From: Candidatus Gastranaerophilales bacterium
GTDB lineage: Bacteria > Cyanobacteriota > Vampirovibrionia > Gastranaerophilales > Gastranaerophilaceae
Length of the DNA stretch: 64,000 nt
Direction: 5' to 3'
NCBI GenBank assembly: GCA_944325145.1
Contig: CALYDL010000007.1
Coordinates: 1 to 64,000 of the forward strand
Shown here: positions 77 through 9,266 of the stretch, one piece after another
How the letters are laid out: each line of letters starts with the position of its first letter
Numbering within the stretch: the first letter of the stretch is position 1
Notes under the pieces: generated by a model
Told to the model about the DNA's origin: nothing
The model's input: the letters and a program-made list of their open reading frames with translations, nothing else
The model's database searches: none
Translations under genes and position numbers: made by a program

Positions 77-238
77 GCAGGAGTGTTGAACTCCTGCCGT
101 AACTGTTGATAGCCGCCGTTATGAATGAAGCGCAAGCGGAATGAATGAACAAATCTTAGTAAAAATAAGAAGCGGTGCGACTTTGTCGCATAAGCTCTAT
201 TTTTACTGATTTGACAGGCGGAGAAAACCAGAGTGCAG
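77..238 (+). repeat. F1 palindromic element, copy 1
   Basis: This is the first of two tandem copies with a 162-bp period. It opens with a perfect hairpin (GCAGGAGT / ACTCCTGC, 77-97), then the core CGTAACTGTTGATAGCCGCC. A second nested hairpin has AGTAAAAATA (158-167) pairing with TATTTTTACT (198-207) around GCGAC/GTCGC (177-189). It ends near the conserved GACAGGCGGAGAAAA. An open frame runs through both copies on the minus strand but it only follows the repeat. Confidence 0.85.
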
Positions 239-400
239 GCAGGAGTGTTGAACTCCTGCCGTAACTGTTGATAGCCGCCGTTATGAATGAAGCGCAAGCG
301 GAATGAATGAACAAATCTTAGTAAAAATAAGAAGCGGTGCGACTTTGTCGCATAAGCTCTATTTTTACTGATTTGACAGGCGGAGAAAAAGCATAAAACC
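239..400 (+). repeat. F1 palindromic element, copy 2 (truncates prepilin 1)
   Basis: This is a near-identical tandem copy of 77-238, differing mainly by an 8-bp insertion (about 389-396) near its right end. It supplies the last residues and the stop codon of the minus-strand prepilin gene (318-1088), so the element has replaced the original 3' end of that gene. Confidence 0.85.
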
Positions 401-1088
401 AGAGTACAGGTTTTGGTTTTCTGTCACCATTGACATCAACAGTCATAATACAAGGAGGTTTTGTTGTGCCATCAGAATTATTATTTAAGCCATAACTGCC
501 ACAGCCGCCGCATTGATGACCGTCAACAACATCTAAATCACCGGTTTGTCCGCCATAACAAGCGTATACATTGCTCTCATACAATTTATGCCTCTGATAA
601 TTATGCCCTTTCCTTAATTCAAACCTCATGCCATCTGTTGTGTAAAACGCCGCATTTTGCCATTGCGACTGAATCATATATTCTTTTATCAACTGAGTTG
701 TACTTTTCATAACAGACATATGTCGCATTAAATATCCATATAAATTTGCATTATCATAAGGAGATTCCCCATCTATTGCCATATTCATTGTAATTGCTGA
801 ATTAAGCACGCTGACAGCTTTTCTAAGCCCTGTTTTAAATTCTTGTTGTTGAGAATTTGAAATAACACTTGGAATTGAAATTGCAGCAACAACGCCAATA
901 ATAGCTAAAGTTATTAAAACTTCTGCTAATGTAAAACCTCTTTTTCCGCCTGTGGGTATTTCGCAAGACTCACTATCGCTTACGCTGTCGTTCGTTTGCT
1001 CAATTATCCTACGGCGGCTATCAATAGTTTCGTTCAATACATTCTGTATTGAACTACACCCTGTAAAAGTTTTTTTAAATCTTTTCAT
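318..1088 (-). CDS. Prepilin-type N-terminal cleavage/methylation protein, altered at both ends
   Basis: This 256-residue protein has a type IV prepilin/pseudopilin helix, KRG|FTLAEVLITLAII at residues 49-62, which a prepilin peptidase would cleave after Gly51. Its body is close to the paralogue at 8053-8781 (shared NAITMNMAIDGESPYDNANL and CGGCGSYGL). Two things are odd. The leader is 51 residues instead of 5, because about 46 residues encoded by an F1-like element sit between MK and KRGF. After VDVNGDRKP the frame runs into another F1 copy, so the last roughly 60 residues of the paralogue are lost. A Shine-Dalgarno AAAGGA precedes the ATG. The protein may be functional only if the C-terminus is dispensable; otherwise it is a decaying copy. 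Confidence 0.85.
   Translation of the reverse strand: MKRFKKTFTGCSSIQNVLNETIDSRRRIIEQTNDSVSDSESCEIPTGGKRGFTLAEVLITLAIIGVVAAISIPSVISNSQQQEFKTGLRKAVSVLNSAITMNMAIDGESPYDNANLYGYLMRHMSVMKSTTQLIKEYMIQSQWQNAAFYTTDGMRFELRKGHNYQRHKLYESNVYACYGGQTGDLDVVDGHQCGGCGSYGLNNNSDGTTKPPCIMTVDVNGDRKPKPVLWFYAFSPPVKSVKIELMRQSRTASYFY
943..1082 (-). repeat. F1-like element inserted in frame in the prepilin 1 leader
   Basis: Read on the minus strand it has a hairpin (TTCAATAC / GTATTGAA, 1033-1053), then the F1 core ACTATTGATAGCCGCCG (about 1011-1028), and ends ACAGGCGGAAAAAG, matching the order in F1 copies 1 and 2. The hairpin stem is entirely different in sequence but still perfectly paired. Its length (about 138 nt, 46 codons) preserves the reading frame. 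Confidence 0.75.
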
Positions 1089-1170
1089 TAATACTATCCT
1101 TTCATTAATATTTATCTTTTTCTTCTATTTTTAATTTTTTATCTTTCAGCTTTTTATCTACCAACAAGCC

Positions 1171-1451
1171 TTTTAAAATCATCTGTCTTTACCGAAAGGT
1201 GAGGCGTCGGGGCGGGAGTGTCCTTTTTAGAGAATAGACAATTATTTTTTAAAATCTAATCTTCTTAATTAATAACGAAGCCCCGACTCTGAACAGCGGG
1301 TTTTGCGTAGCACGTAGGGCAAAGCCCGAAGTGCGCCAAGGTGAGTGACGTGTGGAGCGGAAAATTCCTTAAAAAAGGAATTTGGAGCGTAATCCAAGGA
1401 GCGAACCGCTAGCAAAACCCAAGAGAACTTAGGGGACAGATGATTTTAAAA
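1171..1451. repeat. F4 element with nested F2 element
   Basis: The 17-bp perfect terminal inverted repeats TTTTAAAATCATCTGTC (1171-1187) and GACAGATGATTTTAAAA (1435-1451) bound it. The homologous copy at 8907-9056 is about 130 bp shorter; the difference is the F2 element at 1295-1425. The interior contains a GC-rich stretch (CGAAAGGTGAGGCGTCGGGG) unlike the AT-rich surroundings. Confidence 0.8.
1298..1420 (+). repeat. F2 palindromic element (copy III), nested in F4
   Basis: The terminal inverted repeats are GGGTTTTGC (1298-1306) and GCAAAACCC (1412-1420). The interior shares the GTAGCACG, GGGCAAAGCCCGAA, GTGCGCCAAGGTGA and GAACCGCTAG blocks with the 7231-7975 array and has a central hairpin AAATTCC/GGAATTT. 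The uninterrupted F4 copy at 8907-9056 is the empty site; GAAC on both sides is a possible 4-bp target duplication. Confidence 0.75.
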
Positions 1452-1497
1452 GAAAAGATTAAACTTGTTCACTAAGCCAACGTTTCTTTCTTTTCCT

Positions 1498-1622
1498 GCC
1501 TATTTTCTTTCTTTGCGTGCAGGACTCCGTTGAAGAAAGTTAATAACTTTCTGAAATGGAGCAGGCGAATTGAGGCAAAGCCGAATGAGCCGTATATCAA
1601 TCTTCAAAGAAAGAAAATAGGC
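1498..1622. repeat. Inverted-repeat hairpin with nested F3 element
   Basis: GCCTATTTTCTTTCTTTG and its complement bracket an F3 element (about 1521-1603) that contains the hypervariable hairpin AGAAAGTTA/TAACTTTCT (1534-1552). At 8811-8866 the same outer inverted repeat surrounds only 16 bp, so the F3 unit is an insertion here. Confidence 0.75.
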
Positions 1623-1655
1623 AAAGAAAAATATAAGTAAACAATTTTAAAAGGC

Positions 1656-1831
1656 TTATTTGTTTTTTAATGTGCGGTTAAATTTAAACGCAACAAAATA
1701 TTCATTATGGGGCATTAAGGTGAAAAGCATTGATATTATTGAATGAAAGGAAATGAAAAATTATAAAAAAGATGAAAATTTATGTATTGAACAGTATTGA
1801 AAATAATGATAATATAAGGTTATAGAACTTG
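1656..1831 (+). other. Conserved prepilin-distal region, possible short transcript
   Basis: This stretch resembles 9060-9231: both have AATGTGCG(G/A)TTAAATT, an identical CGCAACAAAATATTCATTATG-type block, a GGTGAAAAG block, a purine-rich AAAGGAA, and then a terminator. Here AAAGGAA precedes a possible 15-codon peptide at 1754-1801. I see no larger gene. It may be a small RNA or the remains of a duplicated gene. Confidence 0.4.
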
Positions 1832-1866
1832 AATGCAACATAATGAGCATTATGGGGCATTTTTTA
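1832..1866 (+). terminator. Terminator-like hairpin
   Basis: AATGC..CATAAT pairs with ATTATG..GCATT across an internal loop and is followed by TTTTTT. The homologous position at the second prepilin locus also carries a terminator (9232-9266). Confidence 0.6.
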
Positions 1867-1957
1867 TGTAATAAAAACATTCCGTTTAATCTTATTTTTG
1901 TTTTTATATTGCTTAATAATTTTAGCAATTATTTTTTCTTTCTTTTTTATAAAATGT

Positions 1958-2659
1958 ATGGAAAAATTGCAGCTTAATTTAATTTCAAATTATCAAAATT
2001 TTGGCAAAAAAACGCTTGTCCCAAAAAACAACTTTGCAACAAAAAACGATGTTTTTGAAACATCAAACCATGTTAGTTTTACATCACGCCACATTATGGA
2101 TGTAAACTTAAAAAGAAGAACAACAAAAAACCCTATTAAGGCGCAAGTTAGAGAATTAGATTTTTCAAGCCAAGATGACAGGCTTATTTTCAGCTTAAGT
2201 TCAATTTGGGCAAAAACACTTTATATGGAATCAATTTTGAAAAATTATTTTAAGGGCGGAAACAACAGGTTTTATGTTGTGGCTGAAGGACAAAAAGATG
2301 ACATAAAAGCAAGCGATGTTAAAAGCATTTTGTTTTTTAAAGATGTTTCAAAAGGCGGCAAAAAGCAATGCAGCCTTGAATTTTTACAAGCAGCACCCGA
2401 GATTGCAGACAATGAAAAAAGTTCAATAAGAGGAAGTGGCGAACTTGCCCTTTATGCCGCCGTTCACCATGCCAAAGAAGCAGGCTGCAAGAAAGTTACA
2501 TTAACAAGCACAAATGATGATTTCTATGACAATGTGGGCTTTGAGATGGGTGTTAAAAAAGATTATAAAAAAGCGGGCTGGCCTTATTATTTAGACGAAA
2601 AAGACTATGATTGGTTTTTAGAAAAAGTTGAAAAAAAATATGGGTTTAAAAACGAATAA
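1958..2659 (+). CDS. GNAT-like acetyltransferase-fold protein
   Basis: This 233-residue protein carries RGSGELALYAAVHHA at about residues 158-172 and FYDNVGF near 190, which together resemble the acetyl-CoA loop (R/Q-x-x-G-x-A) and the FYxxxGF element of GNAT N-acetyltransferases. The first 60 residues are unlike GNAT domains and include NHVSFTSRH, reminiscent of the F-[KT]-G motif in other lineage-type proteins here. An in-frame TTG at 1898 would add a hydrophobic segment, but the ATG at 1958 gives a soluble protein and is preferred; neither has a clear ribosome-binding site. Substrate unknown. It stands alone, with convergent neighbour 2693-2956. Confidence 0.7.
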   Translation: MEKLQLNLISNYQNFGKKTLVPKNNFATKNDVFETSNHVSFTSRHIMDVNLKRRTTKNPIKAQVRELDFSSQDDRLIFSLSSIWAKTLYMESILKNYFKGGNNRFYVVAEGQKDDIKASDVKSILFFKDVSKGGKKQCSLEFLQAAPEIADNEKSSIRGSGELALYAAVHHAKEAGCKKVTLTSTNDDFYDNVGFEMGVKKDYKKAGWPYYLDEKDYDWFLEKVEKKYGFKNE

Positions 2660-3101: not shown

Positions 3102-3272
3102 TGCATACGCTTTTTATTAAAAATAGTTCACAAATAAATTTGCATGACAAAAAGCGTTCACAAATAAATTTGCATACGCTTTTTATTAAAAAATAGTTCA
3201 CAAATAAATTTGCATGACAAAAAGCGTTCACAAATAAATTTGCATACGCTTTTTATTAAAAAATAGTTCACA
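3102..3272 (+). repeat. Operator-like tandem repeat array upstream of fic
   Basis: About 2.5 units with a 69-70-bp period start with TGCATACGCT at 3102, 3171 and 3241. Each unit carries two copies of GTTCACAAATAAATTTGCAT (3126, 3156, 3196, 3226). Inside is the dyad CAAAT-aa-ATTTG. The last TTCACA also forms the -35 box of the fic promoter. The layout fits autoregulation by the DNA-binding C-terminus of the Fic protein; an iteron role is possible but no replication gene is near. Confidence 0.65.
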
Positions 3273-3294
3273 ACCGTAATTTTTATGCTATAAT
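3267..3294 (+). promoter_or_regulatory. fic promoter
   Basis: TTCACA (3267-3272), 16-bp spacer, TATAAT (3289-3294). The start point would be near 3301, placing a GGAG at 3301-3304 just ahead of the ATG at 3314, so the mRNA leader is very short. Confidence 0.65.
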
Positions 3295-3313: not shown

Positions 3314-4423
3314 ATGAAGCCATTTGTACCAACAAAAATGAATGATATTAATTTAGATTTTGTTAAATTAATTCCTTTAATTTCCAAATCTAATTCTGCA
3401 TTGTCTAATTACAACGGTGCACTAAAGCACTTATTAAACCCCGGGATTTTGCTTGCACCAATGACCGCTAAAGAAGCAACTTTATCGTCCAAAATAGAAG
3501 GAACTCAAGCAACCTTAACCGAAGTTTATAAACAAAATGCAGGGGAAGATTTTTCTATAAATAAACAGCAAGATATTAACGAAATTAATAATTATTGTGA
3601 AGCCACATTTTTTGCTGTTGAAAAATTAAAAGAAAAGCCGTTCATTCATTTAAATATGATAAGAGATATTCATTCTGTTTTACTAAAAGGTGTCAGGGGT
3701 GAAAACAGAGCAAGAGGCGAATTTAGAAAAATACAAAATTGGATTGGACCAAAAGGTTCTAATATTGAAAACGCAAGCTATGTTCCGCCCGCCCCTCAAG
3801 AATTAATGAAATATCTTGATGACTGGGAAAAATTTGTTAATTCTGATTATATAGACTTGCTTATCCAGTTAGGTTTAGTTCATGCGCAATTTGAAATAAT
3901 TCACCCGTTTTTGGATGGAAACGGAAGATTAGGAAGAATTTTAATACCGTTATTTTTATTCCAAAAAGGCTACTTGCAAATGCCCGCCTTTTATTTAAGT
4001 GAATATTTTGAAAGCAATAGAGATGAATATTATCAAAAATTAAAAAATGTTTCTGTAAAAAACGATTGGCAATCTTGGATTGAATTTTTCTTAAACGCAA
4101 TCATTATTCAATCCGAAAAAAATATTGTAAAAATTAAAGAAATTATGGATTTGTATGAAAAAATGAAAACTACAATTGCTGAAACAACAAAATCTATCCA
4201 TTCACAATGCATTTTAGATGTTTTATTTATATACCCTGTTATAAATTCAACACAATTTTCAAAAAAAACGAAAATTGAAAGAAAAGCAACCGCAAATGCG
4301 CTATTACAAAAACTTGAAGATAAGGGAATTATAAAATTAATAAAAGAGGCAAGTGGCAACCGCCCGAATATTTATGCCTTTGCACATTTGTTAAATTTAA
4401 TTGAAGAAAAAGAAGTAATTTAA
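3314..4423 (+). CDS. Fic family protein (AMPylase) with intramolecular inhibitory motif
   Basis: This 369-residue protein has the Fic core motif HPFLDGNGRLGR at 197-208 (catalytic His197), expected to transfer a nucleotide monophosphate, usually AMP, to a target hydroxyl. S58-x3-E62-G63 matches the inhibitory [ST]xxxE[GN] helix; its position N-terminal to the Fic core makes this a self-inhibited class II protein. The last roughly 80 residues (NSTQFSKKTKIERKATANAL) look like a winged helix that could bind the repeat array directly upstream. There is no separate antitoxin gene, consistent with class II. The physiological target is unknown. Confidence 0.9.
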   Translation: MKPFVPTKMNDINLDFVKLIPLISKSNSALSNYNGALKHLLNPGILLAPMTAKEATLSSKIEGTQATLTEVYKQNAGEDFSINKQQDINEINNYCEATFFAVEKLKEKPFIHLNMIRDIHSVLLKGVRGENRARGEFRKIQNWIGPKGSNIENASYVPPAPQELMKYLDDWEKFVNSDYIDLLIQLGLVHAQFEIIHPFLDGNGRLGRILIPLFLFQKGYLQMPAFYLSEYFESNRDEYYQKLKNVSVKNDWQSWIEFFLNAIIIQSEKNIVKIKEIMDLYEKMKTTIAETTKSIHSQCILDVLFIYPVINSTQFSKKTKIERKATANALLQKLEDKGIIKLIKEASGNRPNIYAFAHLLNLIEEKEVI

Positions 4424-5272: not shown

Positions 5273-7186
<1,914 letters not shown>

Positions 7187-7230: not shown

Positions 7231-7975
7231 GCGAATTTTGCGTAGGGTGAAGTGAAACGAAACCCGCCAATGTGAAAGCCGAACGGAATGGAAAAAGTGC
7301 ATTTAGCGCTTTTGAAATGAAGTTGCAAGGCTTGAACCGCTAGCAAAATTCAAGAGGCGAAAATTCTCCTCCAAGAGGACCCATTTTGCACAAAATCAAA
7401 GATTTTGGCAAAAGGAGGCGTAGCACGAATGTGAGGGCAAAGCCCGAACGAAGTGCGCCAAGGTGAATGACGGGTGAAGCGAAAAAATTTCTTGAATAAG
7501 AAATTTTGCAGCGAAATCCAAGGAATGAACCGCTAGGAATTTTCAAGAAGCGAATTTTGTGGAGTGCGGAGCGAAAGCGAAGCACGCGGTAGCGAGGGCA
7601 TAAGCGAATAAAAGCGTAAGCGATATGAGCGACTTGCCCGAGTGAAACAAAATTCAAGAAGCGAATTTTGCGTAGGGTGAAGTGAAACGAAACCCGCCAA
7701 TGTGAAAGCCGAACGAAATGGAAAAAGTGCATTTAGCGCTTTTGAAATGAAGTTGCAAGGCTTGAACCGCTAGCAAAATTCAAGAAGCGAAAATTCTCCT
7801 CCAAGAGGACCCATTTTGCACAAAATCAAAGATTTTGGCAAAAGGAGGCGTAGCAAGGAATGTGAGGGCAAAGCCCGAACGAAGTGCGCCAAGGTGAATG
7901 ACGGGTGAAGCGAAAAAATTTCTTGAATAAGAAATTTTGCAGCGAAATCCAAGGAATGAGCCGCTAGTAAAATTT
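7231..7975. repeat. Tandem array of five F2 palindromic elements
   Basis: Units I, II, IV, I' and II' are joined by CAAGA(A/G)GCGAA-like linkers; I-II and I'-II' are a 430-bp-period duplication. Terminal pairs are GAATTTTGC/GCAAAATTC (7233-7241/7343-7351 and 7663-7671/7773-7781), GAAAATTC/GAATTTTC (7359-7366/7537-7544) and GAATTTTGT/ACAAAATTC (7552-7560/7647-7655). Each unit ends with CCGCTAG or similar before the right repeat and has a central hairpin of variable sequence. ORFs across it are repeat-driven. The stretch fills most of the dnaK-prepilin 2 gap and holds no gene. Confidence 0.8.
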
Positions 7976-8001
7976 AAGAGGGGGCAAATTCCAGAATTGT
8001 C

Positions 8002-8052: not shown

Positions 8053-8781
8053 TTATTTCTTGCTTTGCGCCTGATACATTGCTTTTTGGGCAACAACGCC
8101 ATAAGGAATTGCCCTATCTTCTGTTATTAAAATTGTAAAAATATCTTTTACTTTTTTATCTGTTGGCAAAGGTGCTTGCAAAATATTGTATTGTTTTGCA
8201 CAGTTGGAATCTTCGCAATTTACATTGCCGGGATACGGTTTTCTGTCACCATTAACATCAACCATTATTGCACAAGGTGGTTTTGTTGTTTTATTCGGAT
8301 TTGTTGCTAAACCATATGAACCACACCCACCACATATATTATATATATCATTAACACAAGTTCTTTGACCTGTTTCGTGCAAAACCGGGCCAGAAAGAGC
8401 ATCTGATGTTGATGATAAGTGTTCAAAGCGCATGCCATCTACTGTATAAAAACCTGAATTACTTCCCAAATAAGATTTTCCAGAGTGCGAAATATAGTAA
8501 TAATATATTCTTAAACTATTAATCCCGTTATACGATTTCATTACATTCATGTGTCTTTGCAAATACCCAAATAAATTTGCATTATCATAAGGGCTTTCGC
8601 CGTCTATTGCCATGTTCATTGTTATTGCTGAATTAAGTACGCTGACGGCTTTTCTTAAACCTGTTTTAAATTCTTGTTGTTGAGTGTTAGATATAACAGA
8701 TGGAATAGAAATTGCAGCTACAACGCCAATAATTGCTAAAGTTATTAAAACTTCCGCTAATGTAAAACCTCTTTTTTTCAT
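8053..8781 (-). CDS. Prepilin-type N-terminal cleavage/methylation protein
   Basis: This 242-residue intact type IV pilin/pseudopilin family member starts MKKRG|FTLAEVLITLAIIG, a minimal prepilin leader with cleavage after Gly5, followed by the hydrophobic assembly helix. The body has Cys-rich segments (CVNDIYNICGGCGSYGL, CEDSNCAKQ) that may form disulphides. It is the undisturbed paralogue of 318-1088, which lacks the last roughly 60 residues. AAAGGA precedes the ATG. Assembly machinery is not in this window, so whether it is a pilus subunit or a secretion pseudopilin cannot be told. Confidence 0.92.
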   Translation of the reverse strand: MKKRGFTLAEVLITLAIIGVVAAISIPSVISNTQQQEFKTGLRKAVSVLNSAITMNMAIDGESPYDNANLFGYLQRHMNVMKSYNGINSLRIYYYYISHSGKSYLGSNSGFYTVDGMRFEHLSSTSDALSGPVLHETGQRTCVNDIYNICGGCGSYGLATNPNKTTKPPCAIMVDVNGDRKPYPGNVNCEDSNCAKQYNILQAPLPTDKKVKDIFTILITEDRAIPYGVVAQKAMYQAQSKK

Positions 8782-8810
8782 AAACTATCCTTTCATTATT
8801 TAATTGCTTT

Positions 8811-8866
8811 CTGCCTATTTTCTTTCTTTGGCTCAAACGCCGCACGCAAAGAAAGAAAATAGGCAG
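8811..8866. repeat. Inverted-repeat hairpin, uninterrupted
   Basis: CTGCCTATTTTCTTTCTTTG (8811-8830) and its complement (8847-8866) surround 16 bp. The same repeat at 1498-1622 is interrupted by an F3 element. Confidence 0.8.
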
Positions 8867-8906
8867 AAAAAGAAAGAAACGCGGCTTAAATATGTTTAGT
8901 CTTTTC

Positions 8907-9056
8907 TTTTAAAATCATCTGTCCCCTCAGTCGTTCAGAGTCGGGGCTGCGTTATTAATTAAGAAGATAAGTTTTAAAAAAAAGAATGCCTATTTTCTAA
9001 AAAGGTCACTCCCGCCCCGACGCCTCACCTTTCGGTAAAGACAGATGATTTTAAAA
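8907..9056. repeat. F4 element, uninterrupted copy, inverted relative to locus 1
   Basis: It is bounded by TTTTAAAATCATCTGTC (8907-8923) and GACAGATGATTTTAAAA (9040-9056). It is homologous, in reverse orientation, to 1171-1451 but lacks the nested F2 unit. Confidence 0.8.
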
Positions 9057-9059
9057 GGC

Positions 9060-9231
9060 TGGTTGTTTTTAATGTGCGATTAAATTAAACGCAACAAAAT
9101 ATTCATTATGTTGTAATGGGGTGAAAAGGGTTAATTTTATTGAATAAAAGGAAGTTAAAAATATAAAAATAAATAAAAATCCAAACCTTGAAGAAAGGTT
9201 TAAAGAATGGTATTATAAAGAAAAGAAAAAG
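9060..9231 (+). other. Prepilin-distal conserved region, second copy
   Basis: Homologous to 1656-1831 (CGCAACAAAATATTCATTATG, GGTGAAAAG, AAAGGAA) and also followed by a terminator. There is no ATG-started gene; a frame reading NPNLEERFKEWYYKEKK lacks a start codon and may be a remnant. Confidence 0.4.
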
Positions 9232-9266
9232 AAATGCACCAAAATGAATATTATGGTGCATTTTTT
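9232..9266 (+). terminator. Terminator
   Basis: AAATGCACC pairs with GGTGCATTT across 14 nt and is followed by TTTTTT. Confidence 0.7.

What the first reader, a model, noticed from the sequence alone, without database searches (positions are those of the whole stretch)
1168..1655. Probable invertible DNA segment upstream of a prepilin gene
Perfect 12-bp inverted repeats GCCTTTTAAAAT (1168-1179) and ATTTTAAAAGGC (1644-1655) bracket a block made of element F4, a spacer and an inverted-repeat hairpin. At the second prepilin locus (8811-9059) the same three parts, spacer included, appear in reverse order and orientation, while the distal sequence after ATTTTAAAAGGC is the same at both loci. That is what inversion of the bracketed segment would produce. 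Phase-variable inversion in front of pilin genes is well known (fim-type switches), but the elements here match nothing I recognise and no recombinase is in the window.
Basis: partly seen in the sequence, partly recalled or inferred. Interest (0 to 1): 0.75.

Follow-up and report, generated by a model that had tools for sequence, protein, structure and literature searches.

The report
Invertible promoters silencing many pilin genes

Summary
The sequence observation is confirmed: the F4-spacer-hairpin block (1168-1655) lies reversed relative to locus B (8808-9059), with GCCTTTTAAAAT / ATTTTAAAAGGC at its ends. The block is not a single switch. It recurs upstream of about 22 of roughly 45 prepilin genes in this genome, in both orientations (12 and 10), each orientation tied to different linkers. 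No locus shows the product of a simple local flip.

The better candidate inverton lies next door, between the block and the upstream gene: P1-promoter-P2 (1690-1858 and 9091-9259). P1 and P2 are 24-25-bp dyads about 144 bp apart. Over 105 copies in three species their 7-8-bp cores match in inverted register while the arms differ, and cores vary between loci. A conserved promoter-like sequence points away from the pilin and runs into P1, a terminator-like hairpin with a T tract, so every complete copy reads as OFF. Three contigs of a sister species carry hybrid P1/P2 sites joined in the core. A 179-aa FimB-sized tyrosine recombinase adjoins its own core-covarying inverted pair. Inversion itself was not seen in reads. 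Locus A has mismatched cores and a damaged pilin, so it looks decayed.

The parts
1168..1179 (+).
1171..1451 (-). Element F4 at locus A, interrupted by a 128-bp repeat (1297-1424)
1452..1636 (-). Spacer and hairpin H at locus A; hairpin loop replaced by another repeat
1644..1655 (+). 12-bp repeat ATTTTAAAAGGC; promoter-side end with an F4-like remnant (GTAAACAATTTTAAAAGGC)
1690..1713 (.). P2 site of the inverton at locus A; core does not match P1 (ATATTCAT vs ATGCTCAT), so probably inactive
1787..1815 (+). Outward promoter-like sequence TTGAAC-17-TAATAT, pointing away from prepilin A
   Evidence: below the strict consensus scan
1835..1858 (.). P1 site at locus A; hairpin followed by T tract 1860-1865 on the + strand
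318..1088 (-). Prepilin gene A, damaged: repeat inserted in the 5' part, 3' end replaced by a repeat; aligns to residues 3-184 of prepilin B only
8053..8781 (-). Prepilin gene B (N_methyl, 242 aa)
8808..8869 (.). Hairpin H at locus B (23-bp perfect stem; predicted RNA fold with flanks -37.7 kcal/mol, z -6.2)
8870..8906 (.). Spacer S at locus B
8907..9056 (.). Element F4 at locus B (predicted RNA fold -52.1 kcal/mol, z -5.9); part of the 5' leader if the promoter is ON
9091..9114 (.). P2 site (proposed recombination site, gene side) at locus B
9188..9216 (+). Outward promoter-like sequence TTGAAG-17-TATTAT with TG extension, pointing away from prepilin B (OFF)
9236..9259 (.). P1 site (proposed recombination site, distal side) at locus B; with T tract 9261-9266 forms a terminator-like hairpin for the outward transcript (-16.5 kcal/mol, z -6.7)

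Best explanation
The region in front of each prepilin is modular: upstream gene, P1-promoter-P2 (inverton), optional F4/spacer/hairpin leader block in either orientation, ribosome-binding site, prepilin. P1 and P2 are the two sites of a conservative site-specific recombination system, probably served by a small tyrosine recombinase such as the 179-aa protein at G000:C3:67368. In the usual assembled state the promoter fires away from the pilin and stops at the P1 hairpin plus T tract (OFF). Recombination in the matched cores flips the segment (about 170 bp from P1 to P2) so that the promoter reads through P2, the leader block and the pilin (ON). The reversed 1168-1655 block is a leader module. 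Its two orientations are inherited with their linkers and spread among loci by duplication and ordinary recombination; it is not a switch of its own. Shown by sequence: the anatomy, the core matching, the uniform orientation, the hybrid junctions. Inferred: promoter activity, ON expression, which recombinase acts, switching in living cells.
For: 105 distinct P1/P2 pairs in three species: at the four variable core positions of the 25-bp sites P1 equals the reverse complement of P2 in 97-100% of loci, against 34-51% if partners are shuffled, while some arm positions match in only 9-19%. More than 12 core types; spacing 142-145 bp. Promoter-like TTGAA-17-TA with TG extension, outward in 104 of 105 under a permissive motif. 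At least 5 T in 8 bases beyond P1 in 101 of 105, and at most 4 beyond P2 in 100 of 105. P1 folds as a hairpin (z -6.7 at locus B), P2 does not (z -0.8). Hybrid sites P1-left arm / core / reverse-complemented P2-left arm in G004 contigs C40, C47, C153; C153 joins the upstream flank of window locus A to that of another locus, and its inner segment shares at most 51 nt exactly with any other held locus. Recombinase 97% identical between G000 and G001, beside an inverted pair whose core changed in a compensating way (TGTTTAA/TTAAACA vs TGATTAA/TTAATCA) with arms conserved; it has the R, K, HxxR, H and Y motif residues. 0 of 22 block loci show a simple block-flip product.
Against: No read data. All complete copies are in one orientation. 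Only one of the two expected hybrid junctions was found (gene-side: 0 hits), none in G000 or G001 apart from one ambiguous P1. Two hybrid contigs end within 80 bp of the D segment and could be assembly artefacts. The paralogues share ancestry, so 105 copies are far fewer independent events. A general PWM preferred the outward promoter in only 75 of 105, and the mean score was close to that of shuffled sequence. The same recombinase family occurs in species with few or no such sites, and no copy was found in G004, where the hybrid junctions are (that MAG is 85% complete).
Confidence: 0.7

Rival explanations
1. One reading: the F4-spacer-hairpin block itself (1168-1655) is an invertible segment flipped by recombination at the 12-bp repeats.
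For: Both block orientations occur, about 12 to 10, over prepilin loci. Some type-b loci have longer inverted flanks such as CAACAAGCCTTTTAAAATCA / TGATTTTAAAAG.
Against: Linkers differ with orientation and no locus shows the flip product. The short repeat is near chance frequency. Gene-side linkers of the two types are unrelated.
Confidence: 0.08
2. The block orientations arose once or a few times and spread by paralogue duplication, gene conversion and homologous recombination, and P1/P2 are only regulatory dyads (operators or terminators) with no recombination.
For: G004 contigs C222 and C50 look like reciprocal products of crossing over between blocks. Uniform orientation of all P1-P2 segments.
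Against: Does not explain matched, locus-specific, inverted cores with differing arms, nor hybrid sites joined in the core, nor the compensating core change beside the recombinase gene.
Confidence: 0.17
3. F4 with spacer and hairpin is a non-autonomous mobile element (MITE-like) that inserted independently in either orientation.
For: F4 has terminal inverted repeats TTTTAAAATCATCTGTC; about 27 copies; block-free prepilin promoters exist (C14:9294, C24:12850).
Against: Every copy with enough sequence to judge lies in a prepilin leader at the same position; no target duplication or transposase was identified. Independent insertion at one spot over 20 times is unlikely.
Confidence: 0.05

Closest known systems
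Bacteroides fragilis invertible promoters with master invertases (Mpi; Tsr19/BF2766) (PMC4747536)
   Same: Many distant invertible promoters in front of surface-structure genes; a tyrosine recombinase (BF2766) that inverts a local and a distant promoter
   Different: Mpi is a serine recombinase acting on 13 regions; here the candidate is a 179-aa tyrosine recombinase, the targets are pilin genes, cores differ from locus to locus, and all complete copies are assembled OFF. Recombinase-target link not shown here
E. coli fimS switch with FimB/FimE
   Same: Invertible promoter in front of a pilus gene; FimB-sized tyrosine recombinase (NCBIfam DNA-invertase models match with E 1e-6 and 1e-9, below cut-off)
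   Different: One switch in E. coli (own knowledge) against 31 or more sites here; type IV-like prepilins rather than chaperone-usher fimbriae; recombinase closer to XerA/XerD models
Invertons found by PhaseFinder in gut genomes (Jiang et al. 2019, cited in PMC11892184)
   Same: Intergenic promoter between inverted repeats in gut bacteria; large numbers occur (181 in Mitsuokella multacida, PMC11892184)
   Different: No read support here; one homologous family in front of one gene family, with a terminator-like hairpin built into one site
Moraxella bovis pilin inversion (Marrs et al. 1988, cited in PMC11868660)
   Same: DNA inversion controls a pilin
   Different: There the pilin genes themselves are inverted; here the promoter is

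Membership tests
Inverton (invertible promoter) | Inverted repeat sites bracketing a promoter upstream of a gene | tested here: met
   105 P1/P2 pairs with conserved promoter-like sequence, upstream of prepilins where the flank is held; promoter activity itself not tested
Inverton (invertible promoter) | Both orientations present in a population | tested here: inconclusive
   No reads; complete copies all one orientation; G004 contig C40 contains both distal junctions of one locus but ends there
Conservative site-specific recombination | Partner sites share the core (overlap) sequence; exchange falls in the core | tested here: met
   Core matching; hybrid sites switch arms within the shared core
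FimB/FimE-type tyrosine DNA invertase | About 200-aa tyrosine recombinase with catalytic residues | tested here: met
   179 aa; GLR, KKTGK, HTLR, NHSS, RY motifs
FimB/FimE-type tyrosine DNA invertase | Passes the family's curated score cut-off | tested here: not met
   NF007371 37.9 bits against cut-off 222; XerA_Arch 91.3 against 220
Master invertase acting on distant sites | Recombinase shown to invert the distant sites | not testable with these tools
   Only site resemblance and its own inverted pair
   No flip product among 22 loci in G000 or in the G004 loci held

The most novel reading that the evidence does not exclude
A genome-wide silent pilin repertoire: roughly 30 to 65 or more pilin genes per genome, each under its own promoter inverton with a core shared by only part of the family, kept OFF and opened one or a few at a time by intra- or inter-locus recombination under one small tyrosine recombinase. 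This would be an antigenic-variation system by promoter choice in non-photosynthetic relatives of Cyanobacteria.
Probability: 0.4. Interest if true: 0.82.

Novelty: new variant of a known kind. Interest (0 to 1): 0.62.

Why it matters
If real, a little-studied gut lineage of the cyanobacterial phylum runs a large family of paralogous invertible promoters, all on one gene family. The varying cores allow a direct test of how core identity limits recombination between dozens of sites, and the OFF state with a built-in terminator is simple to assay. It also places the likely switch about 0.2 kb away from the repeat first noticed.

Tried and rejected
Rfam: apart from a tRNA no family reached its gathering score; sub-threshold hits to the hairpin are microRNA-like chance folds. 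My first model of the promoter (reading toward the pilin, -35 in P1) was dropped: the conserved TTGAA block 17 nt from the -10 fits only the outward direction. RNA loop-loop pairing of P1 and P2 was dropped: the outward transcript of P1 carries the same core as the pilin leader's P2, not its complement (sequence logic). Gene conversion of P1/P2 was judged unlikely because arm differences next to the core persist. Outward promoter serving the upstream gene: in G000 23 of 31 such neighbours are co-oriented with the pilin, so it has no obvious target there. Recombinases C13:31520 and C8:6068 were not excluded; the C8:6920 paralogue lacks catalytic residues by eye. Searches for the gene-side hybrid and for G001-type hybrids found nothing. 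Literature search found no report of invertible promoters in Gastranaerophilales in the held library.

Full report
Setting. The window is contig C7:1-64000 of a 1.88-Mb, 63-contig genome. Its close relative G004 is Candidatus Galligastranaerophilus intestinigallinarum CHK123-3438 (same genus as the window's genome), so the source is a species of that genus (order Gastranaerophilales, own knowledge). The genome holds 53 matches to prepilin B, roughly 45 of them genes or large fragments, with near-identical N termini.

The observation. The 12-bp repeats and the inverted order at loci A and B are real. The short repeat is weak evidence because TTTTAAAA is near chance frequency here. F4 occurs about 27 times in the genome and spacer-hairpin in many of the same places, and wherever enough flank is held they lie in front of prepilins.

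Two block orientations, not one switch. At 12 loci the order from upstream is D-F4-spacer-hairpin-gene; at 10 it is D-linker-hairpin-spacer-F4-linker-gene. Locus B is the first kind, locus A the second. Each orientation has its own linkers on both sides, with two hairpin variants in both kinds. A local flip at the repeats would leave the type-b promoter-side linker next to the gene; no locus shows that. In G004, contig C222 reads upstream-of-C9, D, linker, hairpin, F4, then D and upstream-of-C22 reversed, and contig C50 has the C22 prepilin joined to a block of the other kind. These look like the two reciprocal products of crossing over between blocks of two loci. So the block behaves as a dispersed repeat that ordinary recombination can use.

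What lies next door. Module D is constant in orientation and present even at block-free prepilins. It starts and ends with dyads P1 and P2, 142-145 bp apart. I collected 105 distinct pairs (31 from G000, 65 from G001, 9 from G004). In the 64 pairs with 25-bp sites the four variable core positions agree between P1 and reverse-complemented P2 in 97-100% of loci; shuffling partners among loci gives 34-51%. Several arm positions agree in only 9-19%, so P1 and P2 keep different arms around identical cores. Core types include TGAGCAA, TGAGTAA, TGAGCTA, TGAACGA, TGAATGA, TGATTAA, TGTTTAA, TGTTTTA, TGTTCTA, TGTATTA, TGTTATA, ATATTCAT and ATGTTCA. Matching cores with free arms is the anatomy of conservative site-specific recombination (established knowledge of tyrosine and serine recombinases).

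Direction. 104 of 105 copies hold TTG-A/T-A-N, 17 bases, TA-box, with a TG extension in most, reading away from the pilin (the motif was permissive and the copies are related). A general PWM gave the outward strand the better score in 75 of 105, with means close to shuffled sequence, so the argument rests on conserved position rather than on strength. At least 5 T in 8 bases follow P1 on the outside in 101 of 105 copies; the gene side of P2 lacks this. The P1 transcript folds well (locus B -16.5 kcal/mol, z -6.7; locus A -12.9, z -3.8), P2 does not (z -0.8). Hence I read the assembled state as OFF: outward promoter, terminated at P1. After inversion the promoter would read through P2, the leader block and the pilin. 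F4 and the hairpin would then be a strongly structured 5' leader (z -5.9 and -6.2).

Evidence of recombination. In G004 three contigs carry a site made of P1-left arm, core and reverse-complemented P2-left arm. C40 has such a site, the inner segment, the normal P1, and then the same upstream flank in reverse, identical for 78 bases to the contig end, as expected if both orientations were sequenced together, or if a true palindrome exists. C47 begins 70 bp before its hybrid site, in an upstream flank matching G000 C15. C153 has long flanks on both sides: one is the upstream flank of window locus A (window 1894-2129, 89%), the other resembles the upstream flank of G000 C16 (by eye). Its inner segment shares at most 51 nt exactly with any other held locus, so a collapse of repeats is less likely. 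These fit recombination at P1 x P2 within and between loci. The partner junction on the gene side was not found; G004 is badly broken there. G000 has one P1 that resembles a hybrid but lies in the usual order (C2:129759); G001 has none.

Recombinase. Five PF00589 genes occur; one is a 300-aa XerC/D-like protein, four are about 176-202 aa. The 179-aa one at C3:67368 is 97% identical in G001, while homologues in other species are 73% or less. Downstream of it, before a gene that looks by eye like a Stealth-type sugar-phosphate transferase, lies an inverted pair about 180 bp apart whose core differs between G000 and G001 by one base changed on both sides, with arms unchanged. This is the best candidate. 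That it acts on P1/P2 is inference, and G004 showed no copy.

Locus A. Its cores do not match (ATGCTCAT vs ATATTCAT) and its prepilin is damaged, so locus A is probably a decayed unit. Locus B is the intact example in the window.

Known systems. Multi-site promoter inversion is known: Mpi inverts 13 regions and BF2766/Tsr19 inverts a local and a distant promoter in B. fragilis (PMC4747536); one gut genome has 181 invertons (PMC11892184); pilin inversion is known in Moraxella (cited in PMC11868660). I found no report for this order. I rate it a new variant of a known kind.

Noticed in passing
window 1690-1713: P2 of locus A carries on its inner side an arm like the outer arm of P1 (GCCCCATAAT); not what a simple inversion gives.
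   Followed up: partly
window 77-389, 1297-1424, 7231-7980: REP-like repeats in tandem and nested; one has invaded F4, and F4 copies with this insertion occur at other loci (C14, C2, C59).
   Followed up: partly
L142, L211, L212, L098, L092: At several prepilin loci a repeat (GCGAAATTCCGTAGCACGG...) sits between a ribosome-binding site and the gene, followed by a second ribosome-binding site.
   Followed up: no
L205, L210, L216, L219, L227, L228, L234, L235: Prepilins without P1/P2 often have a divergent gene that looks like an XRE-type repressor upstream (read by eye).
   Followed up: no
G001, e.g. L277, L278, L281, L293: Inverton copies in back-to-back pairs with P1 sites facing each other.
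   Followed up: partly
L146 (G006:C7) 6141-6378: A hairpin-spacer-F4 remnant without a prepilin in another species.
   Followed up: no
L315 (G004:C56) start: An inverton with pilin-type ribosome-binding sequences on both sides.
   Followed up: no
window 3111-3280: 70-bp tandem repeats before a Fic-domain gene (3314-4423).
   Followed up: no
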